Shown here piece after piece: positions 440 to 57,780 of a stretch of 64,000 nt of DNA. Source of the stretch: Neolentinus lepideus HHB14362 ss-1 (lineage: Eukaryota > Basidiomycota > Agaricomycetes > Gloeophyllales > Gloeophyllaceae); contig KV425614.1 of the NCBI GenBank assembly GCA_001632425.1, forward strand, positions 118,406 to 182,405, in the 5' to 3' direction. The position numbers were made by a program, and so were the translations under genes. The notes beneath the pieces are model-generated. The model had not been told where the DNA came from. It searched no databases and saw only the letters and a list, made by a program, of their open reading frames with translations. How positions within the stretch are numbered: the first letter of the stretch is position 1; each line of letters begins with the position of its first letter.

Positions 440-2075
440 GCCGCGAAAAAGGACACCTCGCTTGCCCGCTGTGTTATCCGCAAAGGAAACTTCGGCCTAC
501 TTCGGCTTACAGGACAGTGACACGCTCATCACGTGCATCCAGTGCCTCGTCACACGCTCTCAGCATGTTGCTCCGCATCCCTCGCCTTGCCTCTCGATGA
601 TGGATGCTGGTATTTTCGGCCTCGATGCATCATAATAGCAAGAAGTGATGCTCTGTAAATGTTTAGAATTCTAGGGACCGGCTGGGACATCCTTTATTCG
701 ACGAAGGACAGGTGCGCTTTCTTGTTTTGCAGTTTTCGTCGCATTTCAGGCTTCAATCGCTTCGTATGTTTTCATACATGAATCGCTCACGATGCATGAT
801 TTTCTGAGATGGTTTCGAAATAATGCCATTCATCTTTCCACCTGTTCGATTTTCTCGGAGAGACTATATAGATCTGGCGAGAGACATTGAACGTGTCTTT
901 CCAGTTTCATATAGCTTCTCGGCGAAGAGGCTTCGAGGTGATGACGGACTCACCGTCGCTTTGGCCACAGCTTTCTTTTCTACCACTTGTTTTCTATGTG
1001 TGCGTGATTTTCATGGAAAAGAAATGCACATTATCTTTCGTACCAGATTCTCCTGCTCAGAAAGGATTGGAATAATCCTCAAAGTACCCGAGAGGTCCCG
1101 CATCCCTATCAAAATATCTGATGACGCAGAACACATCAAGATCCAGCCAGGTGGTATACTATTGCTTGTTGCAGAGCGAAGTACTCAGAACGTATTCCCC
1201 TTGTCATGTGTCCCGAACCGTTTGCTCACTGTCGCTCATTATCTGCAGAACACTCAAAGACCGGATACGATAGCAACACTCGAGAGGCTTCGCCCCGCGT
1301 CTTTTCGGGTTCGGTAGGAGAAGCTCGTCCGATTACTGACTTCTTGTGACTTCTAGCATTTGGATACGTGCACCCATGTTTTCTGCTGCACTCATGTTCC
1401 TTTCTTCCTACTGTCTTGCCCTTTAATCCCTCATACTTCCCGCCACCGCCCTTCCTCGCACTTTCCCATGCAGCGTACATTCCGACGTGTTCCGTGGCGC
1501 TAGTCAACGGGTAGGGCGCTTTTCCTTCTGCTCGGCTGTTTGACTTTAATTTTCGGTTCAGACTGTCGACGGGCACGTGCGGGACTTCCGGCAGCTGGCT
1601 CCTAGTTGGGCGCGGCTCACTGAACAGGCGCGAGCAACCTCCCTGATTTTTTCGTGCGGGCGCGCTATCACTGGCAGAGCTAGCTCGGAATAGACGTTCC
1701 TTTGGGCAGGTCTTGCTGTATGTGAGCGGTTCTGTGCAAGTGTCACATCTGAATTCGGACTGGCGTCTCGGACTGATATGGACGTTGTTGTTCGTTTCCG
1801 AGTAGAGGTAACCCTCTCGTGTCGTTGTGAGAGACTTACCGACGGCATGTCAGCGTCTTCCTACCCGAGTCAGGATGGGGGTTCGGCGTGTGTATTTGGC
1901 GCCACAATGCACGACTATGACGGTTTTCAGAGGGCGCAGATCTGCTGGTTCCTATTACAATGTACGTGTCAAATATGCATTTTCATCTTATGCTCTGAGT
2001 TTGGGTGTTCCTCGATATGCGAGACTCTTGTCTCGGTATGACCTATTGTTTGCCGTTATGCTCTTTGGCCGGCTC
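440..2075 (+). repeat. Left arm of inverted repeat IR-A
   Basis: This block reappears on the opposite strand at about 11850-10325, collinear over its whole length. Shared stretches include the CATCACGTGCATCCAGTGCC segment (530-549), the TATATAG segment near 866, the GTGCGTGATTTTCA segment (1000-1013) and the GACTGATATGGACGT segment (1771-1785). By eye the copies are roughly 80% identical with many small indels. Neither copy holds a long reading frame that survives in the other, so it looks like an old dispersed repeat or a decayed gene, not a live one. It lies on the 5' side of the mucin gene. The family is unidentified. Confidence 0.75.
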
Positions 2076-3510
2076 TTCACCTTATCTAGCCTAACTCCGA
2101 TATTTTAAAGTTATGTGACAGACTGCGTGGACGAATGGCGTGAAGATGGCGATTTCCATTGAATGCCGGGGATACATGATAGGCATTGTAAAAGGACTTG
2201 ATTTCTCTGTTCGATAAAGCCATAAGAATAGAAAGGCAACAGACCTCCATGTAGGTATTGATGTCGACTTTTTGAGGCCGACTTGGGAAGACTCAATGCA
2301 GCACCGCCTCCTTGCTTCGAATTTCCACGCCCTCAGTCATCTAACCGCTGGTGATGATGACGATAGTCTGGGTTCCCTGGAAATATATATTCACGCTCTG
2401 AAGCATCCTAGGAACCGGGCCACCCTCATGTCTCAATGAAGCTCGCCTACACCAAATTTCTTTCTCATATTTGGAGAGACTACCCTCAAGACCATAGAGA
2501 CAAATGTTGATATAGATGGGATTGAGATGAGCAATATATGGATGGGGCTTTCAGGCAGGAATCTCAGGTGTTACATATAGCAAGTCTATCTCTCTTCTTC
2601 ATTACTATCGACACAATTCCTATCTGTTCCCCTTGATATTCAGCCCATATATTTTCATTGTATGGCTTTTATTTGAGGTATCTTCGGTAAAAATTGGGGA
2701 CAAACTCATCATACTATAGCCACGATATAAGTGGCCTGGGTCCTGGTTTGGAACCTAAATGGGTCCTCGTAGGTAACTCACAATGGCTACACAGCTACTC
2801 CATGCACGACGTTACCAGGAGAATGAAATTCGTCCTGTTGTCAGTTATTTGTCCTTATTTCTTCCCACGGCAGTCTACGCCACAGCAGTTTCAACTTGCT
2901 CATCATCCAGTCTGGGCATGTCGGTTCATAAGTCGGCCCCAACTTTGGGTCGCAATGTATTTGTCCTGCACGCTCGAGCACGGCAGTTCCAAGAAAACCG
3001 TCGAAGGTGTATTGGTATGTGGTCATACATGACGTCGACTTAGATGTAATGTCTTCGAAAATTGGATAAGAAGGAACGGTTGATCCGGGAGGTTTCGTGC
3101 CGGACGTAATTCGATAGAGTAATCGCGACAATCTTATTGCATTTGTAGCCTTGTCAGCCATTAACTAGTCGACTTTGGGTGGCACGCTGGGGACACGTGT
3201 GCCCGAGATGCCATGTAGCTATAGTTACTTTGAGAGCCCGAGGTGGGGGCGGGTGAGGTTTGCGTAGTCGCGGTTATGGCACGCAGAAATGTCCGAGAGA
3301 CACTTGTGCGATCAGCATAAAAAATGACCGGAAAGAGGATACTCGGACGGCGGCGTAAAGCAAAAATAGGATAGCACCCGTACCGCGGCAGGAAAGAGGG
3401 TTTCGGTTCGGTTGATTGACATTGGCCTGGGTGTCTGCTTCGTCCGTGGTAGATGGCTGTGATGACTCTCTCCAGCATGAACAGCGGACAGTAACGTGCA
3501 CCTCACCACC
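2076..3510. other. Intergenic, no gene recognised
   Basis: Only short overlapping frames without recognisable domains, and no repeat unit was noticed. The distal part (about 3200-3510) is presumably the upstream region of the mucin gene, but no convincing TATA box was identified. Confidence 0.5.
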
Positions 3511-10324: not shown

Positions 10325-11850
10325 TGTCTATACACCGATAACGGCAAGCATAATGGCAAACGATCGGTCATAGCGAGACGAAAACCTCGCATATCGAGAA
10401 ATACCTAAGATCAGAGCATAAATGAAAATGCATATTCGATACGCACACTGTCATCCGAACCGGCAGATCTGCGCTCACTGAGAACAGTCAACAGCCACAA
10501 CGTTGGATTGTGGCGTCAGGTACACGAGTCGAAGGCCGAACACCCGTCGTGACTGAGATGGCGGGACGCTTACATGGCGTCGGCAAGTCTCTCACAACGA
10601 CAGAGAAAATTCTGTCTACTCGGAACCGAACAACGACGTCCATATCAGTCCGAGACGCCAGTCCCGATTCAAATATGACACCTGCGCGGAACCGTTCGCA
10701 TGCAGTAGGACCTGCCTCACGGTTCGTAGATCCCGAGCTAGCTCTGGCAGTGATAACGGGTCCGCACGGAAAAATCGAGGCGGCTGCTCGCGCCTGTTCA
10801 TTGAGCTGCCGCTGGAGGAGTTCCACCCGAGCCTGAAACGAAACCAACTGCAAACAACTGGGAGGAAGGATAAGCACCTTACCCGTCAACTAGCACAACG
10901 GAATACACCGGAGCGTTTGCTGCATGAGAAAGTGCGAAGAAAGCGGTGGTAGGAAGTATGAGGGAATGACGGGAAAGGCAGCAGGAAGAGGGGAACATGA
11001 TCAGTAGTCGGATGAGCTTCGCCTACCGAACTCGAAATGACGCGGGGGAGAAGCTTTTTGGGCGTTGATACTGTCACGTATGGCAACCGATCTTTGAGTG
11101 TTATGCAGCTAATGAGTGACAGCAATCGAACGCTCTGGGGCGCGTGACAAGGGGCATACGTTCTGAGTGCTTCGCTCTACAAGAAACAAGAGTACACCTC
11201 CTGGGTCTTGATGTGTTCAGCGGCATCAGGAATCGATGGGATGCGGGATCTATCCGGTACGTTGAAGAGTAGTCCAATCCTCTCGGATCTGGTACGAAAG
11301 ACAATGTAGATTCTTTTCCGTGAAAATCACGCACACGTCGCAGAAACAAATGGTAGAGAAGGAAGCTGTGACCAAAGCAATAGTGAGTCAATTATCGCCG
11401 AGAAGCTATATAGTCTCTTCGTGAAAGTCGAATATGTAGAAGATGAGTGGCATAATTCCATAACCATCTCAGACAATCGGAAGTACCAGCTGCGCGTTTC
11501 ATAACCATGAGCAAGTCCTGTATGAGAATATAGAAGCGATTGGAGTCTGAAATGCGTTATCGCGAAATTCAGAGGCAAGATGGCACACCTGCAGAACCCT
11601 GTGCTTAGTCGGATAAAGGATACCCCAGTCGATCCCTCGGATTTCAGAAATCTCACAGAGCATCATTCTAGTGTATTGAGGCCGAAGATACCAGCGTCCA
11701 TCATCGAGTGGCAAGGTGAGGGATGCAGTACAAAGTTGTTAGGAGTTAACGTGTGAGAAGCTTGTGACGAGGCACTGGATGCACGTGATGAACGCATCAC
11801 ATTTTGATGGATAGCGGATATGTGGCCTCCCCCTTTTATGACTGCAATGT
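10325..11850 (-). repeat. Right arm of inverted repeat IR-A
   Basis: Read on the minus strand, this block matches 440-2075 in order, with the same landmarks: ATCACGTGCATCCAGTGCC near 11790-11770, ATATAG near 11410, GTGCGTGATTTTCA near 11330, and the GATATGGACG segment near 10650. It differs by many substitutions and small indels, including a loss of about 40 bp relative to the left arm near the position equivalent to 1340. No intact frame is shared with the left arm. Confidence 0.75.
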
Positions 11851-12259
11851 GATCGTTCGGCTCCTGTGCTTGCATTATGGTTCAAAATAGTCAAGCTCTG
11901 TTCTTCTTGGAAGGGCTTGAGACCAAAGACGACGCCCTCGGGCCGCCGGCGTCTACTGGCGGGACCTTCCCCAGATTGACAGTACCCGTGGTTCAATGAA
12001 ACTACAAAGAAGAATATACTCGGTCCTTCTGAAAGAACATTCAGAGTTTATGGGGAAAGCCAAGGGACTCAACCTTGTGATGTCACGATGTTTTATTTTC
12101 CATGCAACTCGCATATTTCTGAGGAGCCGGGATTGTCATAAGTGGGCGCACAATACTTCGTTAGACATTTAATATCCATGTTATTACAGAATTTAGTGGA
12201 TGTAGGTGTCTCGAACTCCTGCCCTTTGTAAACCTTATTCGTAAACTTCAGGGACCAGA
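11851..12259. other. Spacer between IR-A and IR-B, no gene
   Basis: Short frames only and no feature recognised. The matching part of IR-B begins at about 12260. Confidence 0.45.
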
Positions 12260-12563
12260 GCCTGAGGAACGAGTCAATAGCGAAAAGCGATGCTTTGCAT
12301 TAAAGCGCTTCATGAATTCGGACATCCATCATTGGCTCGAACATACGTCTCCCGATTGCACACTGACAGCTTTCACTTGGGCTTCAACATATATGCGCGA
12401 AGACGCGGCCACATCGTCGTACAAGAGCTGCCGCCGCGACGGTCGCCGGCCACAGCGTCCAAAGACCCGCGGATCAACGTTAAGGCCTGCAGGTTTGATA
12501 TATACGGTATAATCCGCATGCAGTGCCCTAAATGGACAAACCCTTCAGTGAAATTTAAGGCTA

Positions 12564-13526
12564 CACTGCTATCCAACTCACTTTTGGGAACTTGTTGGAA
12601 ATCCCGGCCATTGGATATCAACGGGATTACACTTGGAGTCCGACCGGTCTCCTTCTGAATCTTGAAAAATCCGCACGCAGGTGGAAACTGATGGCGACCC
12701 GGCCGAAATCCAGCGGCAGGCCCATTGGGCCGATCGCCCGTATGGAATCCAGTCGGATGGCCCATTTGAGGCAGCCCTATACCAGTGCCCGCGAAAATTT
12801 CTAAGTCCATTCCCCTTGCCGTCGTGTCGTGTCACTCTTGTTCTTCGAGTCATTGTATCCGACTTTCTGAACACCTCAGCAAAGCCGCGGCTCATGAAGA
12901 CTCTTAAAAGCAATTCTATCCGGGATCTTAAGGTGTGCTCGCAATGCTGGTGAGCGCTTTCGCATAGTTCTCTGAGGTAACGCTGATTGTTGCCCGGCGT
13001 GAGGTGGCTGCACGTTGATACGGAGGGCAGGCAGGGCGGGGATATACCGGGTTTTGGAATAATGTCAATGAGTAGGGACGGAATGTCCTCTGGTTAACTA
13101 GGTAATGTATATATTCATGCAATCAGTGGGGTATGCTCGCGAGCGGTCCCCGGTGCAGAAGGGGGGATCAATGTCATCGCGATGCCGAGGATGTCATTGA
13201 TTAGAGTAGAATGGATCTTGCAGCGAATGTTATTCACACTTGGTATTTTGTGCATGTTATGTTGTGTCAATACAATGTACTATTAGTATCAGACTATCGA
13301 GGAGGGACGTGAAACTGCTATTGCGAAGCCACCCAGAAAGGAGAGATGGCTCGGGAACCACGTCACGTGGGAACGCTGGTTGGCATATGGATGAGTTTTT
13401 GGATTCCAAGAGGCGAGACGTTGGCCGACAGCTGCGTGCGATTTTTTAGAGTTTTCATTGGAAGCATCTTTGGAATCCGAAGGTGGGCACTCCAACAGAT
13501 TCCCAATAGTGATTTGGATAGCAGTG
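12564..13526. mobile_element. 963-bp nonautonomous DNA transposon, TA target duplication
   Basis: The element begins CACTGCTATCCAA and ends with its inverted copy TTGGATAGCAGTG; the terminal inverted repeats extend about 35 bp with a few mismatches. It is flanked by TA on both sides (12562-12563 and 13527-13528). The opposite IR-B arm (near 30575-30590) reads straight through with a single TA, so it is a natural empty site. A TA duplication is typical of the Tc1/mariner superfamily. No transposase frame is present, so it must have been moved in trans. The insertion happened after the IR-B duplication, or the element was lost cleanly from the other arm. Confidence 0.9.
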
Positions 13527-13529
13527 TAT

Positions 13530-14441
13530 AAGCCTGGTGAAGGCACACGCGAAATATGATCGGGAAGTAAGACGGTGTCAACTCTAACAGGAGAGTCATC
13601 TTGCTCTCCTTTCTTGGCGGCATTTCTTCGTCCCCGAGTCGTTTAATTATCCGTACGTTGTTTTCGTCCTTGCTGTTTCATATCTTCGCATGATTCAGTT
13701 TGGCAAATTTTACAGTACCTATCTATATCAATCCATAGGGAATTCCGTATAACCCTGAATGGCGTAGGAGGCTCAAATTGTCTACGCGATCGCAGGCAAG
13801 GGATATGGGGTTCCAACGGATCATGCAGCAAGTGGGTTCAAGGAGGACGGACTTTAAAAGTTAACAACATCAACCACATTCTCAATCAGCGCCAAGAACC
13901 TTGCAACATGTTCTTTTGACCACAACGAAAAGTAGTCCTGGCTCAGTGGTGAGAATATTGGTAGAGCAATTTCACGGCCGTGTCTGCCGTGAGATGGAGT
14001 GCGCAGTCTTCCGAATATACCGGTGCCTACATACTCAATGTAATGGAGACTAAATATAGGATTATGCTTGCCAAGTAGGGACTAGGGGACCACCACCGCA
14101 GATACAGCCTTAGGTGGCCGCACATCTCATCTCAGGGTCATAAGTTGGTAGATTCTGGAATATTAATAAGTAAACGTAAGAGGATCCTCCCTAAGCAGGT
14201 TCCAAGTCTCTTCAGGTGTATACGGCACATGATCAGACTCGGCCGTGTATGAATGTGTGTAGATTGCCCTGCGTACATCCGACTCATTATTGTTCTGTAG
14301 AGCTTTCGAGGGTCCATCATTGCAATTCATAGCTCGATACACTAAGGGATATAGTATAGGAGTGCAAATTAATTATACAAGCGATGTTAGACAAGACAGC
14401 AAGAACCGCTCTGACAGTCAATCCTAGTCAAAATGATACAC
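13530..14441. other. IR-B arm sequence downstream of the DUF6533 gene
   Basis: No gene is recognised. The stretch is almost identical to 29664-30578 on the other strand, with only scattered single-base differences. Small frames present in both copies (for example 13643-13831 and 30273-30461, minus and plus) are conserved only because the DNA is. Confidence 0.6.
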
Positions 14442-43135: not shown

Positions 43136-43284
43136 CGTCAAGGGATATCCGGCATCCACGTTGCGCACTTGGAGTATTCGACTTGCTGGCTATTTTCGCA
43201 GAAGTTGTCACTCTCCCTCCGCCTTTCTCCCGATCTGGCATTATTTCAATGTATCGTTATATCACGACATCACTTCATTATCTT

Positions 43285-43925: not shown

Positions 43926-46194
43926 ATGACGCCGACCATGAAGAGCTCGAAGCAAGAGTCCATTCGCGTCGATGTGGACGTCGTCGAGAAGCTGGCGAAG
44001 AGCGACGATGAGGCGCTCCTCGAGAGTCTCGGGTACAAGCAGGAACTTAAACGTGAGTTCACCCCGCTCGAGCTGTTTGGCGTGCTATTCAGCGTCCTTG
44101 GTCCCGTGCCCTCTTTCGCGTCAGTGATTTCCACCTGCCTGATATGTTAATACTAAGGTGATATGTGCAATAGCTCGGTCCTGGTGTACGCTATCCCTAA
44201 TGGCGGTCCTGTCGCGATGGTCTGGGGTGTATGTGCACGTTTCGAGTGCCAGAAATCTGTTTGAATGACGCGACTATTAACAGTGGGCCGTCTGCGCGTT
44301 CTTCCTGGTCATTATCAGCCTTGCCATGGCCGAGCTCGGCTCTGCAGCGCCCACGTCCGGTGGCCTGTATTACTGGACCTATTCCCTTTCGTCGCCAAGG
44401 TGGCGCTGTCTTCTCTGCTGGATAGGTATGTCATGAATTGTGTCATCAGTCCCATACACGTACTAACCTGTTACGTCCAGTGGGCTGTGAGACACCTTAC
44501 CTTGGTTTGGCTTGTATGGCGCGTTCTGAGGATGGTTGATAGATTTCAACACGATAAGTCTCTCGGCCTCGGTTGCATCCGTCGACTGGGGCTGCGCAGT
44601 GCAGATCATGGCAGCGGTTAGCATTGGGTACGACGGGGCGTTCGTACCCACGAATGCGCAGACCTAGTACGCCAATCTCCTCCATCCGCGTGTCTATCTT
44701 AGAGACTAAACATTTCCTTGTACGTACCGAACCGAACTCCTACAGCGGTGTATACGGCGCGGTCCTCGTCTTTTCAGGCATCCTGTGCAGCACGGCGACC
44801 AAATACATTGCTCGCGTGCAGTCGCTGTACATCGTTCTGAACATCTTGTGAGTAGTATATCCTCCCGCTCTCTCACTCACCTCAATCTCTCACACCAATC
44901 CAGGTGCTTCATCGCGATCGTCATAGCCCTCCCTGCCGCTACGCCTGCCGAGTACAAGACGCCCGCCAGCTTCGCGCTGGGAAACTTCCAGAATTGTGCG
45001 TTCCAGCCTCCATTCCAGTAAAGAGTATTGACTATTGCTTGTAGTGACGAACTGGCCGAGCGGATTCGCGTTCGTGATGAGCTTCCTCGCGCCACTGTGG
45101 GCCGTGGGCGCGTTCGACTCGCCGGTGCACATTAGTGAGGAGGCGTCCAACGCCGCGACAGCTGTGCCCTGGGCGATCGTGATGGGCACTGCGGTGCCGA
45201 CGCTGCTCGGGTGGGGTGCGTGTTCCCTTTTGTCAGGTTCAATCAAGTCCCTGATTTGGAGGCAGCGCTGAACGTGGTCGTGGCATTCTGCATGGGCACG
45301 GATCCCGAGGCGATTCTGGCGAGTCCGATTGGGCAGCCGCTGGCCGTGGTGCGTCCAGCTTCCCTAGGACCACGAATTGGGTTAGAGCTGATGGATGCGT
45401 ACGGTTTGTGGAACAGGTATTTTATAACAGCCTCGGAAAGAACGGCGCGCTCGCGTTATGGTCGATCGTAATCGTCTTGCAGTACGTACGCTCGTTCTTC
45501 TCGCTGCCTTGGCTAACTACGCTGACAGGTTCATGATGGGCACGAGCATCGTACGCCTCCATCTCCTCGCACATCGATTTGCTACCTGACAACGGTTCAG
45601 ATGACCGTCGCCTCGCGCCAATCCTTCGCCTTCTCGCGCGACGGCGCGCTCCCCTTCTCCTCCCTCCTCTACCGCGTCCACCCGCGCACGCAGATGCCGG
45701 TCAACTGCGTGTGGTTCGTCGCGGGCATCGCCGCGCTGCTCTGCCTGCTGTCCTTCGCCGGGAGCGAGGCCGTCGGCGCGATATTCACGCTGAACGCGGC
45801 CGCGAGCTATGTCGCGTACTCGATACCGATCGCCGCGCGGTGGGCGTGGGGCGAGGGGTACCGAAGTGGACCGTTTAGCTTGGGGTGGTGGGTGAGTGAT
45901 TCCGAACCTGGACCCTGCGTTTTTGGTTTTGAGCGTGTATAGGGATTTCCGGTGGCGATGACGGCCGTTGCGTGGATGGTGTTCTCCATCGCGGTGTTCA
46001 TGTTCCCTGCGAACTGGGGTGCGGGCCCGGCGGAGATGAACTATACGTGCGTCGTGCTCGGGGCGCTGCTGCTGGGCTCACTTGGGTATTATTATTTCCC
46101 GCGGTATGGGGGCGTGTATTGGTTTAGAGGGCCTGTGGCGACGGTGGTGGAGAAAGAGGAGAGTGATGAAGCTAGCTCCGGAAGATGTAGGTGA
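43926..46194 (+). CDS. Amino-acid/GABA-type permease (APC superfamily)
   Basis: A 12-exon model with every phase consistent: 43926-44119, 44174-44228, 44284-44425, 44543-44666, 44746-44847, 44904-44995, 45045-45215, 45266-45348, 45417-45481, 45529-45550, 45601-45891 and 45943-46194. The product is 530 residues, normal for the fungal amino-acid/choline transporter branch of the APC superfamily. A cytosolic N-terminus (LGYKQELKREFTPLELFG) leads into helix 1 and then VYAIPNGGPVAMVWGW, AMAELGSAAPTSGGLYYWTY, SVDWGCAVQIMAA, GAFDSPVHISEEASNAATAVPWAI and SRQSFAFSRDGALPFS, all diagnostic blocks. It should import amino acids or GABA-like amines at the plasma membrane by proton symport; the substrate cannot be told from sequence. 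Exon 10 is only 22 nt, and the intron before exon 4 (117 bp) is longer than the others. Broken relatives lie in both IR-C arms and both IR-B arms. Confidence 0.9.
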
Positions 46195-48442
46195 CAAGGA
46201 TGATTTGGTACAAATAGGATGAGAACTAAAGACAATGCTGGAAAGTACCCTCTCTCGTCAAGGGAGGGAGCCCGGAGGGTTGTGAGAGGGTTAGTGGGCT
46301 GCAGTATACCGTTCACCGACACATGACATTCCTGTGTTGGGATGATAACCGAAGTGAGAGATCAATGAATACAGCCAAAGCCCAGGTAGCTTGGGCTCAT
46401 AAACAACGCGATCTGTGCAAAGACGTAGCACTGTCTACAGCAGGACAAGTGTAGCCACAGGGCAACGTAACTTGTAAGCAAACTGGGGCATGGCAGGTCA
46501 ATCACAAATTCTGAATAGGGTTCGCGAGAGGTATGACAAGATGATAGGAAAGAGGGAGCATACAGACATTCGGAAAGCGGGTGAGGGTGTTCCAGAAGCA
46601 GACTGGCACGTGTAAGAATAGAAACGAGCAGGGGTCAGATGCGGATGACGCGTAAAATTTGAGGCCGCGGAGCGGCGGGTGGGCTGCGGCCAAACTCTGC
46701 GCGGCCAAGAGGGAGACCTTGCACTGGTGGTGGGGGGGAGGTGATCATAACACAGGATGAATTCGGGGTGGGCAACCCCCCCCCCCAGAAAACCACTCTC
46801 ACCCACCGTTGTATGCTTTCCGCTTTCCGCAATGTCTGGGACGCAGTCTTGTACTCGGCAGGAGGGCTACAACGGAAGGTGGACCGCTCACGGGCGAGCC
46901 GTGCCAGCAAAGACGAGGACCGCTCACACAGGCACGTGGATGGAGTGATATCTATCATCCGCGGCATACAAGTCACAGCTCAACGGGACTGAGGACACAA
47001 TTCGTGACATACCTATAGGCTATCCGGCAGAGAAAGGGATACGGCCATATGATGACCAGGAAAACTTGGCCTGTCGATGCCCATAGGGTTCGGGAACTCG
47101 AAACGTGCACGACCGCCGTTAGGGAATGAGAGCTATTGCACACATCTTAGGATCAATTCCGCAGGCGCACACGACCTAACCAAAAGTCCTGTGCACAATT
47201 CGATCCAGATGACGGGTAGAACGAAGACGGTGGGCGTCATCGGAAGACCTGTGGTATATGTTGATGGTCTAATGAGTGTAATCCCTATATGGCATGATGA
47301 AGTTGATCACCTCACCAGGCTGTAACAAGAGCGTAAGACTTGTCTGCGTTCCCGGGCAAGAAAGAAAGACATCCTTGCACGAGTTGGGCGAAGGGAGTAT
47401 ACGAGTACTAGTCTGTAGGCTATAATCGATGTATTAAAAGCTGAGACGATGCGGAGGGACATGGGGCCGGGTTGACATTCGATTCGGACGGTGTAGATGA
47501 TGTGGGTGTGGACAAAGCGGTATAGTGTGGAATACATGGGCGCACTCACACAGACTCGCACTCGAAAATCAAATGAGACACCTACTGCGTTTGACATTTG
47601 AATAGCGGACAGGCACGTTTGAGTAGTCGCCGTACATCACTGTGGTGGGAGGGCGAATGAAGACGGGAGAAGACGGCGGGGAAGCGTCGAGACTCGAGAT
47701 TTGGCCGAAGGAGTTCGGCGAACAGGCACGTTTGACTGTAAAAGTCGGATTGAGAACGCCACAAGGCTAGACAAAGCGTAAGATTTGGAATTCGAGGAGA
47801 CTCGAAGTGGAGCAGAACGAGCACGCAAGAGGTGGAAAGAATTCATCGGGTAAACCGAGCGAGTAATTTGTTGCGCTAGTCGAGTCACAAGTGGCGGGAG
47901 CTTGGCCGACGGCAGAAATGGCGAGGTTAGTGACTGGTTATGAGTACTGCGTTGGACCGTAATACGAAATGGACTGAAGAGGTTGGTAATTCGGGGTGGG
48001 CATGACGCACGTTGTCGCCGGATAAACGCAATACAGCGCCAACACCGCCCAGAAAACACTCGACTCACCTTCCCATCATATGTTTTCCTCGATGTCTCCG
48101 TCTCCATCAAACGCCAGCATAACCGCTTCGAGTACGTCCCCGGGCAGGACACGCTCGCTGGGCGCGCATATATCTGCGCTGTGGCGGGCGGTGTCGGGCG
48201 GACCGGGGACCGAGACGGCGTCGCTGGACACGACCACCACGAAAGTCGACACGGGTGAGTTCAGTCCAGTTTCAGTGTCGGTGAGGGCGCGGTGTGATGG
48301 CAAAGGATGTATGCTATATATGCGTTGGGCGCGATAAGATAAGACTCGGGCGGGGCCGATCCGTTCACCCGGGCGTCTGCCTGTCATCCAGTGCGGATCA
48401 TTCGGTCTCTTTTTCCTCTCGACGTCGTCAGTCCTAACCACC
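46195..48442. other. Intergenic within the IR-C core
   Basis: No gene recognised in 2.2 kb. It contains a run of nine or more C near 46777-46787 and a diverged duplicated motif (ATTCGGGGTGGGCA at about 46759 and 47990, each followed within 90 bp by CCCAGAAAAC and ACTC). Many small frames on both strands have no domain. Confidence 0.5.
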
Positions 48443-49659
48443 ATGTCCGCTGCAGACCACACCCCCGAAGACCGCCGCTCCATCTCCCGAGGTCGCGACT
48501 TTGTGCGTGCGCCCTGTCCCTGTCCTCCCGCCCGCGCTGACCGACAACTGCAGACCTCGAGTGGCCGCGGCGGTGCGGGCAACATCCGCCGCAACCCGGA
48601 CCTCCCAGAGGTGCCCGCCACCATCACCCGCGGCAGAGAGCCCGTCCCGAACTACTCTGCCCGGAGCGTAAGTCCCAATTATTTTCTACATGAATAATTT
48701 GTGACTTTTACTCAGAGCGTGTCTGTCGGCCGGGGCGGGGCGGGCAATATCCGCTCGCCGTCGCGTGACCCCGCGCAGCAGACCGACGCCGCGTACGAGC
48801 AGGAGGTGATCCGGCGCAGGATGGAGGAGAGGCAGGCTGCCGTGGTACGTCCTCTCCCTCCACGTCCGCCCCTCTCTTACTAACCCTCCCCACAGGTCTC
48901 CTCCGGCCGCGGCGGCGCCGGCAACTTCACGTCCCCGTCCCGCTCTCGTTCGCGCGATCCGTACGCCACCCCCACGACGAGCGATAGGTCGAGGTGCGCG
49001 CTTTCTCGCTTTGTAATGTATTCTATTCGCTAACGACTCGACTACCCAGATCCAGAGACGCGCGCCACTCGACAGGGCGCGGCGGCGCGGGCAACATACG
49101 CCCGGGCGACGGCGGAGGGATCGAGAGCGAGGTCATCGAAGAGGAGGAGCGCCGCGGCGTGGGTGGCGCGCGCACTGACGGCGTGTGAGTATCTTGTTCC
49201 TTTGTCCGAGTTACGTTGTGACTGTGTTGCGTTTGCCTGTTATTCCTTCGCTTCCGTCTCACCTGGCTGTTTCCTGCACATGCAAGCCGTGTCCACATTT
49301 GTTTTATTATTCGAGCGTCCGGCGGCTTGTCCCCGGAGCTGCGCGCACATACCGGGATGCCGTGTGTGCGTGCTCGTCCGTTCTTCGCTCGTCGTGTGGT
49401 TTGCGATGAAGACACAGCGCGCCCGTCCGTTTTCTGTGCTCACCGCACCCGTTTTAGACACTCGACCGGCCGCGGCGGCCTCGCGAACCTCACGGCCCTC
49501 CCGTTCCCCGCGCCCGAGCATCACCAGCACCACGATGACGTTGAGAGCACTGGGAGGGGAGGGAGGGGGAATATCAGGTCAAGGAGTCGCAGTCGACGTC
49601 AAGGAGGAGGAGGTGTGGAACCGAGTCGGGCATGGCGAGGAGGGGAGGGAGTAAACTAG
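48443..49659 (+). CDS. DUF3602 (PAR32-like) GRGG-repeat protein
   Basis: Six exons: 48443-48502, 48554-48667, 48716-48844, 48896-48993, 49050-49184 and 49458-49659, total 738 nt, 245 residues. The last intron (273 bp) is far longer than the others (about 48-56 bp). The defining motif S(S/T/V)GRGGAGN(I/F) occurs once in each of exons 2, 3, 4 and 5. Two variants (STGRGGLANL and STGRGGRGNI) are in exon 6, making six in all. The rest is hydrophilic, charged and low-complexity with Arg-Ser stretches, consistent with intrinsic disorder. DUF3602 proteins are fungal; the yeast relative Par32 is a phosphoprotein linked to TORC1 and ammonium-transporter control, but transfer of that role here is inference. 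Neighbour of the permease inside the single-copy core of IR-C. It appears intact. Confidence 0.9.
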
Positions 49660-50594
49660 GGGGAGGGGAAAACGGGTGTATTATTATGCATAAAACGTAC
49701 CGCTACTCTACTTTTCTCGAAAGACAGGTGTATTAATCGATTATCGTTAGGGATGTATGTGGAGTATGCCGTTTTGGGGTGACGTGTCGAGGTTTTGTGG
49801 ATGTGTATCTATCGATGCAACGGGACTTGAACATGACGGCTCATGTACTCGCTTCTACAGATTGCAATACGAGGATTCGGGGGGGGGGCATCGTGAGAGT
49901 TGATAGCGACGCGTAGCATGGTGAGGACGATCCTGGTTGTGATCGTTGCTGCGCTCGGCATATGGATGGGTGGGCAGTTGTACTTGAATACACGGCGACG
50001 CACAGTAGAGCAGCTGGGATGCGAAGGAGATGGAGTTATAGCGACGCGTAATCGCTGGTTGTGCTCATTTCTACGCTCGGTAAATCGGGATACGATAGAT
50101 GGGTGTGCAGTTGTACTTGAATACATGGCGTCGAGCGAAGGAGATGGAGTGGGGTGTGATGAGTTGGTCTCATAAGCGAATGAGGGGAGGAAGAGTGGAC
50201 GGAAGGAGGGGTGTGCGAATAATATTGTGTTGGAATGTTACACAGATTTTTATTTGTCATGTTGAAGGAAACGAGCTGTACGTACATGTCATGTAAAGTC
50301 TAACATAGGGCTATGCCCTGGAGACAATAAACCGGACAAAAATATTGTGTCGAGAGGAGTGCCAGTGGCGTCGGGCGAGGCAGACACGTCATACTCCACA
50401 AAGAACGAGCGGGCGTCGGGAGGGCGAGCGTGATCCTTTGCGGAAGAGCCTAGTGCGAGTCGTCGATAAAGCTCAGAGCTGGAGGTCTCAGTGAGGCAAG
50501 GGAAATCGGGAGACACAGAGTGCGACCGATGAAATACAGAGAGCCGTAGGTGGAAATTAGGGGGAAAGCGGAGGTGTGCAAGTTCCTGACGGAG
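49660..50594. repeat. Intergenic with a two-unit tandem duplication
   Basis: No gene seen. Two adjacent units of about 105-120 bp (near 49936-50038 and 50054-50148) share GGTTGTG(A/C)TC, CGCTCGG, CAGTTGTACTTGAATACA and GCGAAGGAGATGGAG. The first unit also has a poly-G run upstream (49880-49888). Confidence 0.65.
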
Positions 50595-51540
50595 ACGAGG
50601 AGGGCGGGTGTTCTCTGTCACAAAGAAAGATACGAAGAGCACCCAAGATGCCGCTGGGGAAACGGCGGTCTGGTGCGAGTCTTGGAAATGCGGAGGAACT
50701 TGGATGCAATACGGTGCAGCCGCACATTGTTTGCGTGTGCAAGAGATGAGAGAATTTGTGATGGAGGAAGAATTGAGGACGGAGGATGCTTGATGACGCC
50801 AAAGAGTGTGAGCGATCTTTCCACGCTAAGAGCAGGGGAGCAAAGTGTCCGGTAAGAAAGACAGGGCGAGCAGCGGGATACCTAGAATATGCAGAGAAGG
50901 ACGTTCTTGGGAGACGAATGCAATGGCAGGATATCTGGTAAACGCCATGGAGGCAGACAGCGTGATGCTGCCGAGGACAAAACTACAGAGAGTATCCCCG
51001 GGGATGGAAGGAGTGACGCGGGGGAAACGGGAAGCGTTAGCAGGATCTCTTGAAGTGAACGGAGAACTGGCATAGATTGCTGGCAACGGCACCGAGACAA
51101 CGCAGGCACTGCACTGGCACTGTCCCGTGTCTAGATGCAAATGATCAACACGTTCATGGAGGCGTACTGAGAAAGACACGGTGACCGGTGAGGTTTAGCG
51201 CCGATAAAGCCAGGACGACGATGAATGTCCTCTCGGCAACGTACGAAGCCGTGCTCAACGTTGACGGTGAGGCTCGAAGGATTGCGATCTACATGATGTA
51301 ATGCCTTCGACACGTGATCTGTGCACATTCCTCAGAATATAATGCCCATCATATAGAGTGCGTTCATGCTATGCATATATCACTGTCTGTTCTTTTTGCC
51401 ATCACCGGAAAGCAGTACTCACTGGATTGTTGAACGGAAATGCTTGGTTCCATCAGGTTAGCCAACCCTGATTTTTGCAGCATGCATCAAATGGATACTC
51501 AGTACAGCACACTAGCTATCTGACTGTTTTATGAGTTTGC

Positions 51541-52860
51541 TGTACTTTTCCCATTGTAATTAATTAGCAGAATACCCTGAAACGATTGATAGCAGCCTAC
51601 TACCTTGATCCACTATGTTGTCATCTTTTCTGTGCAAAACAACTTTTTCTATCATCAATGTGATTCGTTTCGTAATCAGAGGGATGCTCTGAACTTGACG
51701 AGGACCATTCCACTAATAATATGCAGAGTCAGCGGTTGTAAGTGCTAAAAAAGTAGCCCAATAGCTCACCGTCACTGGGCCTAGCAAGTGCCCTCTTTTT
51801 TATCCCATTTCGGGTAGACCCTGGCCAGGCTTTTGTGATGTCAGAGACCTGATGGATGTGCGGACCTAGAATAGATAGGGTGCCAAGTCAAAGATAATAA
51901 GCAAGAAAACACCGACGACACTCACGATTTACCCAAGGCAAAGGAATGGTCAATGGCAAGCCGGTATTGGGGCACTCTGGGCTTGAAGGATATGGAGAGG
52001 GCGGGTCATCTATCTCAATGTTATAGGACCACGGTTTGGTGCCGGCAGATCGTCCAAGGCAGGGGGGACAGGCAGGTCGTGTGTCAGTGATCCGGACAGC
52101 GCAGTGGTGTGTTGTCGCTGTCGCCGACCTGGATGCACGACCTGCTCATTGGTATTGTCGTTATCGGACATTTCAATGTCTGCATCTGATAGGGTGCCAA
52201 GTTAAAGATGATAAGCAAGGTGATTGGTGCTGTACATGCTTACCAGAACCTGCGACACCACTGCGATCACGCATCTCCCGGTGTCTCTCCACCACCGCCC
52301 GCATCCACTTTTCCCTCAACTTCGGCGGCATCAGCTCTTCTTGCATATCAACCATATACACGTCACCATCTCCTTCTCCACTCTCAAGCTGTCCATCCAT
52401 CCACGTCACGTGCGAATAATAGAGTTGTGAGGGTCTGAATGACGAATGTGGTAGGATGGGATGGGGATTCCGAGCCTATTGAGGGTAGGCTCTGAGATCT
52501 GGATGGTAAGCAGCTAAGATGTTCGAATTGAATAAAGGCAGCAGACGGAGTGTAGGCAGCAAACGGGGGGCGGTCAACGTTGACGCGAGCTCGCGCCACA
52601 GATCGTGCCGGCATCACCAACACTCCGCCTGCGGATATTTACATATGCGCTGTGTTCTCCTCTCCTCTCGCTCTTGTTCTCCTGCTCGCTGTGACGCCTA
52701 GTCTGCATGTTCGGACACCCGGCCCTCATGCTATTCTTTCGTCTATCCATATCTAACCGGTGATACACGCTCAACACAACAAAAGCGCAGGATTGGGGTC
52801 ACGAATCACTCGTCCACCACCCCAGGCTAAATAGCCCACTTCTATACCCCTCCCCCCACG
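51541..52860 (-). mobile_element. Probable transposon fragment inside the right IR-C arm
   Basis: The left arm passes from the equivalent of 51540 directly to permease sequence, so this block is extra here. On the minus strand an exon at about 52409-52230 (SGEGDGDVYMVDMQ..PPKLREKWMRAVVERHREMR) joins through a GTAAGC donor and a TATCAG acceptor to 52186 onward (DADIEMSDNDNTNEQ). Further proline-rich sequence follows, then another intron of standard form near 51930-51880. The frame breaks at about 52025, so no full protein results. The acidic, Pro-rich make-up after a short K/W/R segment resembles N-terminal regions of agaricomycete KDZ/Plavaka-type transposases, but this is a weak assignment. 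A 32-bp direct repeat (51871-51903, 52188-52219) spans the two intron 3' ends. Confidence 0.45.
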
Positions 52861-52869
52861 CCCACCGCG

Positions 52870-53640
52870 CTGATTACGCGACGTAGCTCGCAGCCGCGTT
52901 CAGTGTGGATATCGTGCCAAGGGCCTCACTCCCGGCGAAGGATAGCAGGCGGAGGAGCGCTGCAATGCCCACGACGAACCACACGCAGTTGACCGGCGTC
53001 TGCGTGTGTGGGTGGATGCGGTAGAGGAGGGAGGAGAAGGGGAGTGCGCCGTCGCGGGAGAAGGCGAAGGATTGGCGGGATGCGACGGTGATCTAAGGGG
53101 ATGTCAGTACCTGGATAGAAATGCGAGTACATGATCACGGCGTACGATGCTCGTGCCCATCATGAACCTGTCAGCATAGTCAGTCAAGGCAGTGAGAAGA
53201 ACGAACGAACGCACTGCAAGACTATTACGAACGACCATAACGCGAGCGCGCCGTTCTTTCCGAGGCTGTTATAAAATACCTATTCCACGAACCGTACACA
53301 TCCATCAGCTCTAACCCACTTCGTTGTCGCCTCGAGATCCGTGCCCATGCACGACCACGTTCAGCGCTGCCCCGATCCCTTACGGCATAGAGTCAAAAGG
53401 CCCACGTAAGGCAATCCAGACAACAGACAGAGCCAAAGACGGTGGGCGATAAGTGCAATGCCTGACCTTTTATCGAAGACTTGCGACATACATTTTATCA
53501 GACATAAAAGAAGGCTTATGAGCGTAATCTCTATAAGAAAGAATAACGAGGCTCAGAATACGAAAATTATTCCACCTACAAAAGCGATCTTATAAGCTTC
53601 GTGCTGCGGCCACACTCGCCTCATATTGCCACAAAGCAGT
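52870..53640 (-). pseudogene. Permease locus with internal deletion, right IR-C arm
   Basis: Read on the minus strand it begins with the upstream unit (about 53645-53385), then passes through CGTAAGGGATCGG/GGCAGCGCTG into the middle of the permease, the same junction as in the left arm. The following exons have lost the ASPIGQPLAV codons. SRQSFAFSRDGALPFSSLLYR through VNCVWFV and LLSFAGSEA is nearly clean, and a stop follows at SYVA (near 52877). It retains more 3' sequence than the left-arm copy. It is not functional. Confidence 0.85.
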
Positions 53641-54585
53641 TCACGAAATTAATAGAGTTGATTTGCGCCGTCCCTGCGGCACGTACCAATGAGAAGGAGA
53701 TGACGGGGGTAGAACGGTCGAAGAAACTCCAAGACCGCCGGAATCGCTGCGCGGATACAAGCAAAGCGGTTCGAAGGTCTCGGGGAAGGTGTCAAACGCG
53801 GGGATGGAAGTGAGATACAGGCGGGAGAGCGAATTGTTGAGGTGGTGTGATGGGATGGGTGAAGTCGTGACTCACGCGCGTTGCCCGATTGTGAGGGCAT
53901 CCACGCACTTACTTCTGGATCAGGAAGTATGGGCGTCGCATCTTGCGGCGCAGAACACCTATAAACAAAAGGTTTTGGAGGCATGCACCCCGTCAACGTC
54001 GAGATGCCACGCAGGCCAAGTGTCACAACATTTAAGCTCAAATACAACTACATTTGATTGCCTTTTCTCATATACCTCAGCCAAAAAATACCCTCCCATC
54101 CATGCAGGCTGTCGCTGCGGTGCACGCAGCCAGAATCGAACGTCGCGCTGACCGCTGAGTCGCCGCGACAGAATGTAACGAACTCAATGGCAGATTCGTC
54201 GTGGCCCGCCGTGGACGTCGCGACAAACTGCGACGTGTACGGCGAATGGTCGAGGCAGCCAGACAACGACGTCCGTGGGCGGCACGATGCGACAGAGGAG
54301 GTGGCAAGGCGTGTGAACCGCCGCTGGCGGGTAAGTTGGATATCTCGGACATGGTTGTCCTTCGCAGGGCTGTACAATCACGTCGTGATTATCACGTGAC
54401 ACCGCGATTGTGGCGTGAAACCTTTTGCTCGCCGCGAAACCCAAAACTGGACCACTTCTCAACTACCCTCAACGCTCGAACTGAAAAACCCGTTGTCCCG
54501 ATTTAAAGCTAGAGTACTCGGTATGGGTCAATTTTGGACGTTGTGAGTACTACAGAGCGCCAAGTTTTACTGAATTCAAGAACTG
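53641..54585. other. Unassigned conserved block of the IR-C right arm
   Basis: Inverted counterpart of 40495-41439, with several indels (for example extra ACAAACTGCGACG near 54221). The frames are not conserved between copies over their whole length. No family was recognised. Confidence 0.4.
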
Positions 54586-55591
54586 ATGGCACCCTTCTCT
54601 AGCGTCAATCTTGATGCGAGAGAAAGCACAGGATATGGCAAGTTGGGGGAATTTATGCCTTACAGTTATACTGGAAGCGTCAGCAGTTGGCTCTTGACGA
54701 CATTGCTTCCCTATGCAATCGAATTCGAATTCGAGTTAGATGCACTTAATGACAAGATTTCACGGCGTGCCACAAGGTACAAAGATACTTCTGCCTGCCC
54801 TCCACAACCTGACCTTCCGCAGGAGTCGCCTAGGCGGTTACTTAAGCCATCTCAACATACCACCAGAGCTCCTCTATATGATATTTTCCGAACTCGACTG
54901 CCTCGAAGATGTAGCTTGCCTATGCATTGCCAACAGTGCGTTGTGGGTAGTCGGTATCGCCCGAGTTTTGGAGCTTGCCCGGAAACCCCCGATGCGGTGT
55001 GAAGGCCAACGTTTGATATTCATTGGGGAGCATTCCACAGATTTGCCCGAGGGCTTGCTCAACCCCGAAGAGATGCAGAGATCCAGGGGCTTTGAAACCT
55101 TCTCTGAATTTTTGTGGAAGCGCTGCACTTATCGTTCCAACCGGAATCTGGACCTCTTGAGGCGTTTACCATGGAATGAAAGAGAAGCTTTTGTTTTTTT
55201 GGCGTACCCAGGACTCCTAGGAGATTATGGATTCCGATATCCTGACAACTACTACCGCGAACGAAAATGGGTTCTTTGCAATCTATCCAAGAAGGAATAT
55301 GTTTGCTCTTCCAAACTCTTAGACACCCTCGCGGATGCTATCCACCTCGGCGATGTCCTCCTTTCCCAGATCTGCTGGTCCTCCCACCCATCGACTTCTA
55401 TGCGCTATGAAGGAGATCTCCACCGCGGCGCGTGGGCTGGAGACCGCTTCGCAGTCTGGGATGTTGAAGAATTTGAAGAGCATGAGAAGAAGGATAGAAC
55501 GTGGAAGGACGTCTCAGAAGAGGTACTAAAGACCGTGGTTGAGATCTGGCGATCTGAGTACGGTCCGAACTGGCCTGAGGACGAGACATAG
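54586..55591 (+). CDS. F-box-like protein, right copy, intact
   Basis: Two exons, 54586-54776 and 54823-55591, joined by a 46-bp intron with a GTACAA donor, a CCTGAC branch-like motif and a CCGCAG acceptor; splicing moves cleanly from one reading frame to the next and gives 319 residues. An F-box-like segment begins at about residue 72 (LNIPPELLYMIFSELDCLEDVACL). The downstream region (WVVGIARVLELARKPP..., then a Trp/Arg-rich part ending YGPNWPEDET) has no recognised domain. F-box proteins act as substrate adaptors of SCF ubiquitin ligases, and large, fast-evolving F-box families are typical of agaricomycetes. The first two frames overlap without the intron, so an unspliced start at 54740 is the alternative. 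The left copy (40494-39489) is stopped by a nonsense codon. Confidence 0.8.
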
Positions 55592-56351
55592 GGCCGTAAT
55601 GGAGATAACGATGAGAATGACGAGACGTATCGGGGGCTGGGCAGGAAGTGGGGATGACATCAAAGTTTCAGATACTTTACGGAGGACGAGAAAGTATCAT
55701 CTTGTGATACATTTATAATCATTTTTTCAATCCAGACAAATTCATTATGCATTGGTGCTCAAGGTGTATTTGCCTCTGTCGATTCAGTTCAGTAACTCAT
55801 TGCGGTTTGATGGGTCATTGCTTTGATCCTGGAAAGAAGAGCCGGAGTTACCGATAAACGACAGCAAGACATATTTGGCAAACTCAGGGAAGCCTTTCCA
55901 TCTCGTCATGTGAATGCACGATCAACAACCGGTCAACTGTAGGCTTGTGGAACTGAATGACAACTCGATTAGTGCGGCCATTTTCTGTGTTTCTCCATTC
56001 AACGGAAGGAATCAATCCGGCCACCTCGCAGATGTTGCCTGGACTCCGGACTACGAAGAATCAACCCAACCATAGAATAGGTTTAGATGATTTTGGCAAA
56101 AATCAAGGATCTCCGTGACGTTGCGGGTCTGTGTCACCAACGGTGCTCTGCGGAGGCTACAGACCGATCACGAAGCTTATCCAGGAGCATCCGGTAAAAC
56201 GAGAGGCGGAATGCATCCTATGTATTGACTGATCCTCTAGAAACGAACCTGAAGGCCTCACGTGTCCACAAGAAATTGAAGAGAGTCCTGAAAAGTAGAC
56301 AAGCTTAACATGCTGGTGTACTTACTACGGAGTATCACAGCCGGAAGAGAG
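55592..56351. other. IR-C arm downstream of the F-box gene, no gene
   Basis: Matches 39480-38740 inverted. No gene recognised. Confidence 0.5.
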
Positions 56352-57138
56352 CGTCATCAATATTGTGCATCGACCTCTGGTAAATAAATATGATCATGGT
56401 TGACGTTGTACGTATGACTCTGGAAGAATACCTTGCAACCTATCGAAGAGTGTGCGCCGCTCTTCTGAGGCACATGGTGATCGACTGCCTTCGCCTGGTA
56501 GATATGGCTTTACCACGGTTTTGTTGGTTCACCAGTTCATCCACGAACAGCCCTTTTGAAGGGGGTCTCCACCGGCACACATCGTCAGGACAGTAGCGTG
56601 AGCAGGCGCATCAGGAATTGTAATGCAGGGAATCACGGCTATCTGGCGCTCCCAGCACGATGAGTAGCGACCATATGCTGACTAGAAAGGCGAGAAATGA
56701 TCTTGTCAAATGCAGTATCGTCTTGGAGGGTAATGAACTTCACTGACTTTGCCACAGTCGTCATCTACACTGCGAATATTATATTTCTGTACTTGGGGTC
56801 TAGATACTCAGTGCAGACATACTTCATAGGATTCAACCAGAATACAATCTCGATAATTATTTGAGCGCTGAATGATCATGGCAGAACATACCCATGTTCC
56901 GAAGTACTATCAGAATTTTCACATACTGTAATAAGGCTATGTTGGCCATTGAGATCTGCGCATGCTGTATTTGCCTGGGTCGGTACCAAGTTGCCAACTA
57001 CGATCCGAAATAGCCCAAATAGTTCAGCAAAAGGCGATTTTCCTGTGCGAAGCTGTCCAGTAATACCAAGCTGTAGATTCGTCAGATGTTTCGCGTCGAG
57101 AGCAGTGATTACTGCCTCGAAACTGCCGCTAGTGAGCC
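56352..57138. other. About 790-bp block present only in the right IR-C arm
   Basis: The left arm has GCCGGAAGAGTGCGGTAAAATGG-type sequence uninterrupted (opposite strand near 38725-38700), whereas here GGAAGAG and TGCGGCAAAAT are separated by this block. The minus-strand frame 57148-56876 (ALDAKHLTNLQLGITGQLR, FGLFRIVVGNLVPTQANTA) looks protein-like but is unassigned. It could be an insertion here or a deletion on the left; no clear terminal repeats were found. Confidence 0.5.
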
Positions 57139-57780
57139 TGTGCGGCAAAATAGATCGCCTTGAAGATTATCAGCCAGGGCTTTCAGACCAGTGAAATGGA
57201 AGAAAATGGTTGAGAATGATCACGCTATACCGTGCAGTAATGGGACGATGCAGTTGCATACAAGCTGTAGTTAGGGATATTCTTGTGGATGATGTTAAAG
57301 CGCAGGATGCACTCACGCGTGCATGGGTAGATTTGCTAGTATGCGATGGCCATACCGTTCCGAATTATGAGTAGCCATGACTGAAAGGCTCGCAGTCGCC
57401 ACGGACACGCTTTCATGCATAGCGTGACTGCGTGTGAGACAGGAAATAGTAAATTGTAGGTTACGACTCACGAGATGGCACATATATCTAATACTCCATG
57501 CCAATGTACCTCAATGGGCGACAGAAAAGCCAGCGTACGGTGTTTGATACCTGGGCATCAAAAACCTGTGGAAGAGTCAAGGAAAGCGGTTCCTGGGCAA
57601 CAGCGGTGGCCACGCCTGAAAAATCGAGGAAGGAGAGAGGAGTTTAGTATTTGCATTGAATTACGACGCCGAGACGAACATAGAGCTTGATTCGTGATGC
57701 TATACCCGCCGACTCGGATCTGTACCGAGTGATGGGCCTGCTCACATTCCCGAGAAGGTATTGTATGTCGAAGAGTACGC
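57139..57780 (-). pseudogene. Relic at the outer end of the IR-C right arm
   Basis: The minus strand keeps short protein-like pieces, among them LKALADNLQGDLFCRT near 57195-57145 and FDIQYLLGNV near 57780-57750. The matching pieces in the left arm (LADNLQGGPF near 38683-38712) are also broken. The family is unidentified. Confidence 0.4.

What the first reader, a model, noticed from the sequence alone, without database searches (positions are those of the whole stretch)
440..57780. Three consecutive inverted duplications, each enclosing a single-copy gene core
IR-A (440-2075 / 11850-10325), IR-B (12260-18650 / 33290-22101) and IR-C (38050-43135 / 57780-50595) cover most of the window. All repeats are inverted rather than tandem, and each encloses one or two intact single-copy genes: a mucin; DUF1989 plus DUF1275; a permease plus DUF3602. 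Repeated inverted duplication around cores suggests a local mechanism (template switching, foldback repair or recurrent inversion) or a chromosomal context such as a subtelomere, not chance.
Basis: seen in the sequence. Interest (0 to 1): 0.85.

Follow-up and report, generated by a model that had tools for sequence, protein, structure and literature searches.

The report
Inverted gene duplications in mushroom fungus
A stretch of chromosome in a wood-rotting mushroom carries neighbouring gene copies facing in opposite directions around other genes, and one pair of these copies seems to have overwritten each other's sequence recently, much as in a known yeast region that flips back and forth.

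Summary
The inverted repeats are real. The window is contig C64 (200,223 bases) of Neolentinus lepideus HHB14362 ss-1. (1) A third copy of arm B (B0) lies just left of the window. B0+A1 and A2+B1 look like one long, old, transposon-interrupted inverted repeat around the Ser/Thr-rich gene; B1 and B2 form a younger one around DUF1989/DUF1275; IR-C is separate. (2) The arms are low-copy local duplications carrying a DUF6533 gene (B) or an F-box-named gene (C), not transposon ends. (3) Arm identity is patchy. B1 and B2 share 1298 identical bases (16976-18273 / 22494-23791) beside a segment 17% diverged, while B0 differs by 11-19% over most of that stretch. This suggests recent gene conversion, or an assembly copy. 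(4) "All inverted" is not exceptional: neighbouring members of three gene families are on opposite strands in 20 of 41 pairs. Best explanation: successive inverted local duplications of gene-family segments, then decay; only B1/B2 keep a long identical stretch. Whether the core flips, as in the Saccharomyces flip/flop region, is untested. New member of a known kind; moderate interest.

The parts
1..476 (.). End of a dispersed transposon with about 140-base inverted ends, whose other end lies left of a 5.7-kb N stretch; it interrupts the left arm between B0 and A1
   Evidence: 47 matches in own genome, itself included; ends and a possible 3-base flanking repeat TTA
517..2062 (+). Arm A1, inner left arm of the old inverted repeat around the Ser/Thr-rich gene
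   Evidence: 69% inverted match to 10347-11800; only these two full copies in the genome
3771..9530 (+).
   Evidence: ORF translations, tandem repeats; no Pfam match for 7941-9530
10347..11800 (-). Arm A2
11879..18647 (-). Arm B1, outer part of the right arm of core 1 and left arm of core 2
   Evidence: inverted to B0 at C64:104562-110366 (66-80%) and to B2 (94-97% in the two main blocks)
14445..16164 (-). DUF6533-family gene copy B1 (own model P0028, 315 aa; no domain called by the database)
   Evidence: tblastn and exon mapping
16976..18273 (.). 1298-base tract identical to 22494-23791 (inverted); probable gene-conversion tract
   Evidence: exact match; longest run in 1000 shuffles of the block 418
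19008..19607 (+). Core 2: DUF1989 gene
   Evidence: PF09347 E 3.1e-52; Heliocybe relative (82%) on a contig of 559452 bases
20545..21219 (+). Core 2: part of a DUF1275 gene
   Evidence: PF06912 E 5.2e-08 on ORF 20515-21219
22105..33277 (+). Arm B2, longer than B1 largely through dispersed-repeat insertions
22494..23791 (.). Partner of the identical tract
24245..27548 (.). Stretch of B2 with dispersed repeats, including an inverted pair 24864-25210 / 25434-25773; its last 0.2 kb is partly arm sequence
   Evidence: 55 matches in own genome, itself included
27929..29660 (+). DUF6533 gene copy B2 (own model P0027, 329 aa, PF20151)
30640..33159 (.). Three dispersed repeats inserted in B2 (30640-31355, 31359-32019, 32107-33159)
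   Evidence: 50 matches in own genome, itself included
38287..43140 (+). Arm C1
39492..40557 (-). F-box-named gene copy C1; the frame holds one TAA, own model P0003 has 222 aa
41709..42140 (+). Fragment of the core amino-acid permease in arm C1 (direct to the core)
43833..45942 (+). Core 3: amino-acid permease gene (exons not fully resolved)
   Evidence: PF13520 E 3.7e-16 on 45526-45942
48338..48697 (+). Core 3: ORF with a DUF3602 match
   Evidence: PF12223 E 2.1e-04, 22.3 bits against cut-off 21
50587..57582 (-). Arm C2
52763..53387 (-). Fragment of the core permease in arm C2 (inverted to the core)
54523..55591 (+). F-box-named gene copy C2, main frame open

Best explanation
The window shows a gene-family neighbourhood of the brown-rot mushroom Neolentinus lepideus that grew by successive local duplications in inverted orientation. 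A segment with a DUF6533 membrane-protein gene exists three times in alternating orientation (B0 outside the window, then B1, B2); a segment with an F-box-named gene exists twice here (C1, C2). Each pair encloses unrelated genes that happened to lie between. The order of events, oldest first, is most likely the long repeat B0+A1 / A2+B1, then B1/B2 and C1/C2. Afterwards the arms decayed by substitution and transposon insertion. B1 and B2 have exchanged sequence recently by non-allelic gene conversion, leaving a 1298-base identical tract. Shown: the repeats, copy numbers, mosaic identity and insertions. Inferred: gene conversion as the cause of the tract, and the order of events. Not shown: how the duplications formed, and any inversion of the cores.
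For: Three matches of the 3.1-kb B block in the genome, itself included, all on C64; 2 full copies of A. B0 flank and A1, joined without the transposon, align with A2+B1 at 175 of 257 and 180 of 259 sites on the two sides. dS over 218 codons: B1/B2 0.115, B0/B1 0.30, B0/B2 0.35. Protein tree: B1+B2 100/100, with B0 plus a metagenome protein as sister group. Divergence differs between nine segments of B (1.2 to 17.4% outside the tract; chi2 222, 8 df) and four of C (5.1 to 13.8%; chi2 87, 3 df). Tract of 1298 identical bases against a longest run of 418 in 1000 shuffles. Over the tract B0 is 81-89% identical to both in eight of ten windows (48% and 54% in the two end windows, where it aligns poorly), and in that block its longest identical run with B1 or B2 is 41, so constraint does not explain it. 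The tract beyond 17106 has no listed matches outside the B copies, so it is not a mobile element inserted twice.
Against: No reads were available, so an assembler copying one sequence into both arms would look the same in the tract. The A pair and the two C segments tested do not exceed their shuffles; the outer B block exceeds 95% of its shuffles but not all (197 against 243); and one of two direct tandem pairs elsewhere on the contig also exceeds its shuffles (138 against 123), so a modest excess is not special to these arms. Part of the rate variation in C may be coding constraint. Right at the B0/A1 junction only 37 of 100 columns match.
Confidence: 0.72

Rival explanations
1. Assembly artefact: two haplotypes or a collapsed repeat were placed twice, head to head.
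For: The contig has two N stretches (58873-59177 and 112709-118405 of C64), which may be assembly gaps or withheld stretches. The 1298-base identical tract is what an assembler would give if it copied one sequence into both arms; the Saccharomyces authors weighed the same concern for their repeats (passage).
Against: On aligned sites arm divergence varies from about 1 to 17% within B outside the tract and from 5 to 14% within C, and is 21% in A, unlike alleles. Each arm has different sequence beyond both ends. B2 carries private insertions. The window has no N. The strain label ss-1 suggests a single-spore isolate (my reading of the label).
Confidence: 0.1
2. The arms are ends of large mobile elements that captured genes.
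For: Transposons lie inside and beside the arms; part of the inner B arm (16774-17106) is a dispersed repeat.
Against: The arm blocks are not dispersed: B has 3 copies, all local, A has 2. C arm relatives on other contigs are partial matches of 69-79%, as expected of a gene family.
Confidence: 0.06
3. A flip/flop system (compatible with the best explanation): the arms are kept alike by gene conversion and the DUF1989-DUF1275 core switches orientation between strains.
For: Inverted arms with a 1298-base identical tract, the copies 4.2 kb apart; the known yeast case works this way.
Against: No second strain or read set was available. Only parts of the B arms are homogenised. The A and C arms have longest identical stretches of 29 and 132 bases.
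Confidence: 0.2
4. One event made the inverted triplication B0-B1-B2 (origin-dependent inverted-repeat amplification or similar).
For: Three copies with the middle one inverted.
Against: Copies differ in age (dS 0.115 against 0.30-0.35) and BLAST finds no copy of one intervening segment in the other, whereas such amplification copies a continuous segment (recalled).
Confidence: 0.05

Closest known systems
Saccharomyces chromosome XIV flip/flop region (PMC9731477; abstract, passages and Discussion read)
   Same: Paralogous genes in an inverted repeat of several kilobases around other genes; arm sequences homogenised, attributed to non-allelic gene conversion
   Different: There the 4.2-kb arms are nearly identical and orientation is polymorphic across the genus; here only part of one arm pair is identical and orientation is untested
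Hansenula/Ogataea polymorpha MAT inversion (PMC4238957; search listing and start of abstract only)
   Same: A chromosomal region between two loci that can invert
   Different: That is a mating-type switch; nothing seen here points to mating type (not searched for specifically)
Origin-dependent inverted-repeat amplification (PMC4689423, PMC10766183; search listings and start of abstracts only)
   Same: Three copies with the middle one inverted
   Different: Here the copies differ in age and the intervening segments are unrelated
Ordinary local duplication of fungal gene families
   Same: DUF6533 and F-box-like matches number 25 and 98 in this genome, with local clusters
   Different: Here several kilobases of flanking sequence are duplicated along with the gene, and one pair shows a long identical tract

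Membership tests
Flip/flop-type recurrent inversion (Saccharomyces chromosome XIV) | Inverted repeat of paralogous genes around unrelated genes | tested here: met
Flip/flop-type recurrent inversion (Saccharomyces chromosome XIV) | Arms homogenised within the genome | tested here: inconclusive
   One tract of 1298 identical bases and one 0.8-kb segment at 1.2% divergence in B; other B segments 2.4-17.4%; no such tract in A or in the two C segments tested
Flip/flop-type recurrent inversion (Saccharomyces chromosome XIV) | Both orientations found among strains | not testable with these tools
   No second strain held; the search tool says this genome has no relatives here
Subtelomeric duplication block | Telomere repeats nearby | tested here: not met
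   No run of two or more TTAGGG or CCCTAA units in C64 and none of these hexamers in the terminal 3 kb (motif recalled); true chromosome position unknown
Transposon with long inverted ends | Dispersed copies of the whole unit | tested here: not met
Single-event inverted triplication | Copies of equal age with copied intervening sequence | tested here: not met

The most novel reading that the evidence does not exclude
A basidiomycete flip/flop locus: an inverted pair of DUF6533 genes around DUF1989-DUF1275 that is older than the split from Heliocybe, is kept alike within each species by gene conversion, and flips its core between strains. Heliocybe sulcata has two DUF6533 paralogues and a close DUF1989 relative on contigs of one and the same length, and its two DUF6533 copies group with each other in the tree, as concerted evolution would also give.
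Probability: 0.15. Interest if true: 0.6.

Novelty: new member of a known kind. Interest (0 to 1): 0.35.

Why it matters
If conversion between inverted arms is ongoing here, mushroom-forming fungi would offer a further natural setting, besides the yeast flip/flop region, to ask why inverted paralogues are homogenised and whether flipping of the genes between them has effects. The test is simple: orientation and arm sequence in a few isolates. It also shows how a raw-sequence view of three separate repeats can hide one older repeat broken by a transposon.

Tried and rejected
Translated self-comparison of the region (tblastx part): its linked E-values gave 827 collapsed rows that look mostly like noise, and the output was cut; not used. 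The protein part was used.

First codon-divergence estimate (B1/B2 dS 0.17, B0/B2 0.33, B0/B1 0.38) rests on uncertain early exons of B1 and B0; replaced by four well-aligned exons. The C1/C2 value 0.042 over 222 codons (6 synonymous differences) is.

In one search the tract showed 5 differences because I set the partner coordinates a few bases off and a small indel follows the exact tract; one search failed to find the 1303-base string for the second reason. One search gives the exact 1298-base match. The 1303 counts aligned sites across that indel; the shuffles ran on those alignments (longest shuffled run 263, 418).

Excess of inverted orientation: tested against neighbouring members (within 30 kb) of P450 (10 same, 5 opposite), DUF6533 (6, 2) and F-box-like (5, 13) families (positions, which scored 92 of 236, 48 of 48 and 150 of 226 candidates; same-strand hits under 1.5 kb apart were merged, 110 P450 hits becoming 85 loci). 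The DUF6533 search did not return the C64 copies, whose domain is split by introns. Neighbours in these families need not be recent duplicates, so this is a rough control. Subtelomere: rejected on present evidence. Rfam (gathering threshold) and tRNA scans of the window found nothing.

Literature: 10 searches, some with more papers than were listed (20 of 25, 8 of 10, 8 of 75 and 8 of 13); no listed title or abstract opening describes this locus. Two papers hold the word DUF6533 (not read).

Full report
WHERE IT IS. The window is positions 118406-182405 of contig C64 (200,223 bases) of a genome of 33.78 Mb in 168 contigs. Searches with two arm proteins returned proteins of Neolentinus lepideus HHB14362 ss-1 on contigs of exactly 200,223 and 82,545 bases, the lengths of C64 and C109. 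So this is most likely the JGI genome of that brown-rot mushroom (sequenced and annotated in 2016 according to passages of PMC10886158). I read ss-1 as single-spore isolate; that is my reading of the label.

OBSERVATION. Self-BLAST confirms three sets of inverted matches at about the stated places. The edges need correction. Window 1-476 belongs to a dispersed transposon (47 matches in the genome, itself included) that ends just before A1; a 5.7-kb stretch of N, a gap or a withheld stretch, lies just left of the window. IR-A homology runs from 517 to 2062 and from 10347 to 11800, at 69% with gaps counted. The right B arm is about 4.8 kb longer than the left one: dispersed repeats lie at 24245-27548 and 30640-33159, while about 1 kb of B1 (12564-13526) has no partner in B2. 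Not all repeats are inverted: the contig holds 17 inverted and 22 direct BLAST pairs of 300 bases or more above 90 bits, many of the direct ones inside the Ser/Thr-rich gene or in tandem copies elsewhere.

WHAT LIES OUTSIDE. Arm B has a third copy, B0, at C64:104562-110366, left of the window, inverted to B1 and direct to B2, about 80% identical over its main block. A genome search with the 3.1-kb B block gave 3 matches, itself included, all on C64; arm A gave 2 full copies. The inner end of B0 (66% to window 11879-12480) stops about 40 bases before the transposon, and A1 starts about 40 bases after it; on the other side A2 and B1 are 79 bases apart. With the transposon left out, the left side aligns with the right side at 175 of 257 sites left and 180 of 259 right of the joint, though only 37 of 100 columns match in the 50 columns each side of it. 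So IR-A and the B0/B1 pair are best read as one old inverted repeat around the Ser/Thr-rich gene, and B1 also serves as the left arm of the younger B1/B2 repeat.

ARM GENES. The B arms carry a DUF6533-family gene: the B2 model P0027 has the Pfam domain PF20151, the B1 model P0028 is shorter and has none called, and B0 can be mapped along the same exons. The C arms carry a gene whose relatives are named F-box by sources; my own Pfam scan of the C2 frame found no family at E 0.01. The C1 copy has one TAA in frame and a 222-aa model. Beside each lies a weaker, degenerate relative. Both C arms also hold fragments of the core amino-acid permease (69-86% identical pieces at the protein level), and both B arms hold a 29-residue match to it (66%, E 9e-8).

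AGE AND MOSAIC. Over 218 codons of four well-aligned exons, dS is 0.115 for B1/B2, 0.30 for B0/B1 and 0.35 for B0/B2. For C1/C2 it is 0.042 over 222 codons. Divergence is uneven along the arms. In B1/B2 the three short outer pieces show 6.8-9.3%, 13529-14342 shows 1.2%, 14343-16541 6.5%, 16548-16750 15.1%, 16774-16975 17.4% and 18279-18647 2.4%. Between the last two lie 1298 identical bases. In C1/C2 the four segments show 13.8, 5.1, 6.3 and 12.8%. The run in the inner B block exceeds every one of 1000 shuffles (longest 418); the outer B block (197) exceeds 95% of its shuffles but not the longest (243); the A pair (29) and two C segments (132 and 49) stay within theirs; of two direct tandem pairs used as controls one exceeds its shuffles modestly (138 against 123) and one does not (37 against 49). 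Over the tract B0 is 81-89% identical to B1 and B2 in eight of ten windows and aligns poorly in the two end windows (48% and 54%), with a longest run of 41 in that block, so the stretch is not simply constrained. Apart from a dispersed 333-base repeat that overlaps its start (16774-17106), the tract has no listed relatives outside the B copies.

MECHANISM. The most likely account is local duplication in inverted orientation of gene-family segments at different times, followed by decay, transposon insertion and, in B1/B2, gene conversion between the arms. Conversion is inferred: a copying error of the assembler would give the same tract, a concern the Saccharomyces authors also weighed for their case. 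How the duplications arose is not shown. Their inverted orientation alone is weak evidence for a special mechanism: among neighbouring members of three families in this genome, 20 of 41 pairs are on opposite strands, giving 0.12 for three of three and 0.06 for four of four inverted events. No telomere repeat runs occur in C64.

RELATIVES. Heliocybe sulcata has two DUF6533 paralogues and a DUF1989 protein 82% identical to ours on contigs of the same length, 559,452 bases. I take this to be one contig, so that arm gene and core gene were linked before the two genera split; positions are unknown. In the tree the Heliocybe pair groups together (100/98) and the Neolentinus copies, with a metagenome protein beside B0, group together (95/94), with B1+B2 at 100/100. 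This fits separate duplications, or one old duplication with conversion in each lineage.

COMPARISON. The closest known case is the Saccharomyces flip/flop region, where inverted 4.2-kb repeats of paralogous genes are homogenised, by gene conversion as its authors propose, and the 24-kb region between them has flipped repeatedly (abstract, passages and Discussion read). The Neolentinus B1/B2 pair has the same layout and one identical tract, but the homogenisation is partial and orientation in other strains is unknown. I therefore say it may work like that system and do not file it as a member.

VERDICT. Interest 0.35; the flip/flop reading would deserve more if shown.

Noticed in passing
24864-25773: An inverted pair (347 bases, 97%, 224 bases apart) inside B2, with relatives on C22 and C37: a foldback-like element.
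   Followed up: partly
1-476 and C64:110406-118882: Transposon of about 8.5 kb (two thirds of it N) with inverted ends and a possible TTA target duplication; its ends have many copies in the genome, some pairs only 1-2 kb apart.
   Followed up: partly
32107-33159: A 1053-base dispersed repeat with two 96% full copies (C70, C30) and four more at 80-84% among those listed.
   Followed up: no
18398-18484, 22268-22354, 41709-42107, 52781-53387: Permease fragments lie toward the inner part of the B1, B2, C1 and C2 arms, which may mean that an old permease duplication underlies both repeats.
   Followed up: partly
L006, L007 (C109): Two relatives of the F-box-named gene lie about 42 kb apart on C109 on the same strand.
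   Followed up: no
C64:22007-26193: Three direct tandem copies of about 0.9 kb (78-90% identical) elsewhere on the contig.
   Followed up: no
19008-19607: Among the 120 listed of 3250 relatives of the DUF1989 protein, named bacterial ones are 54-61% identical, named fungal ones 82% (Heliocybe) and 53-55% (two ascomycetes), and unnamed metagenome ones up to 97%; transfer from bacteria is possible but untested.
   Followed up: no
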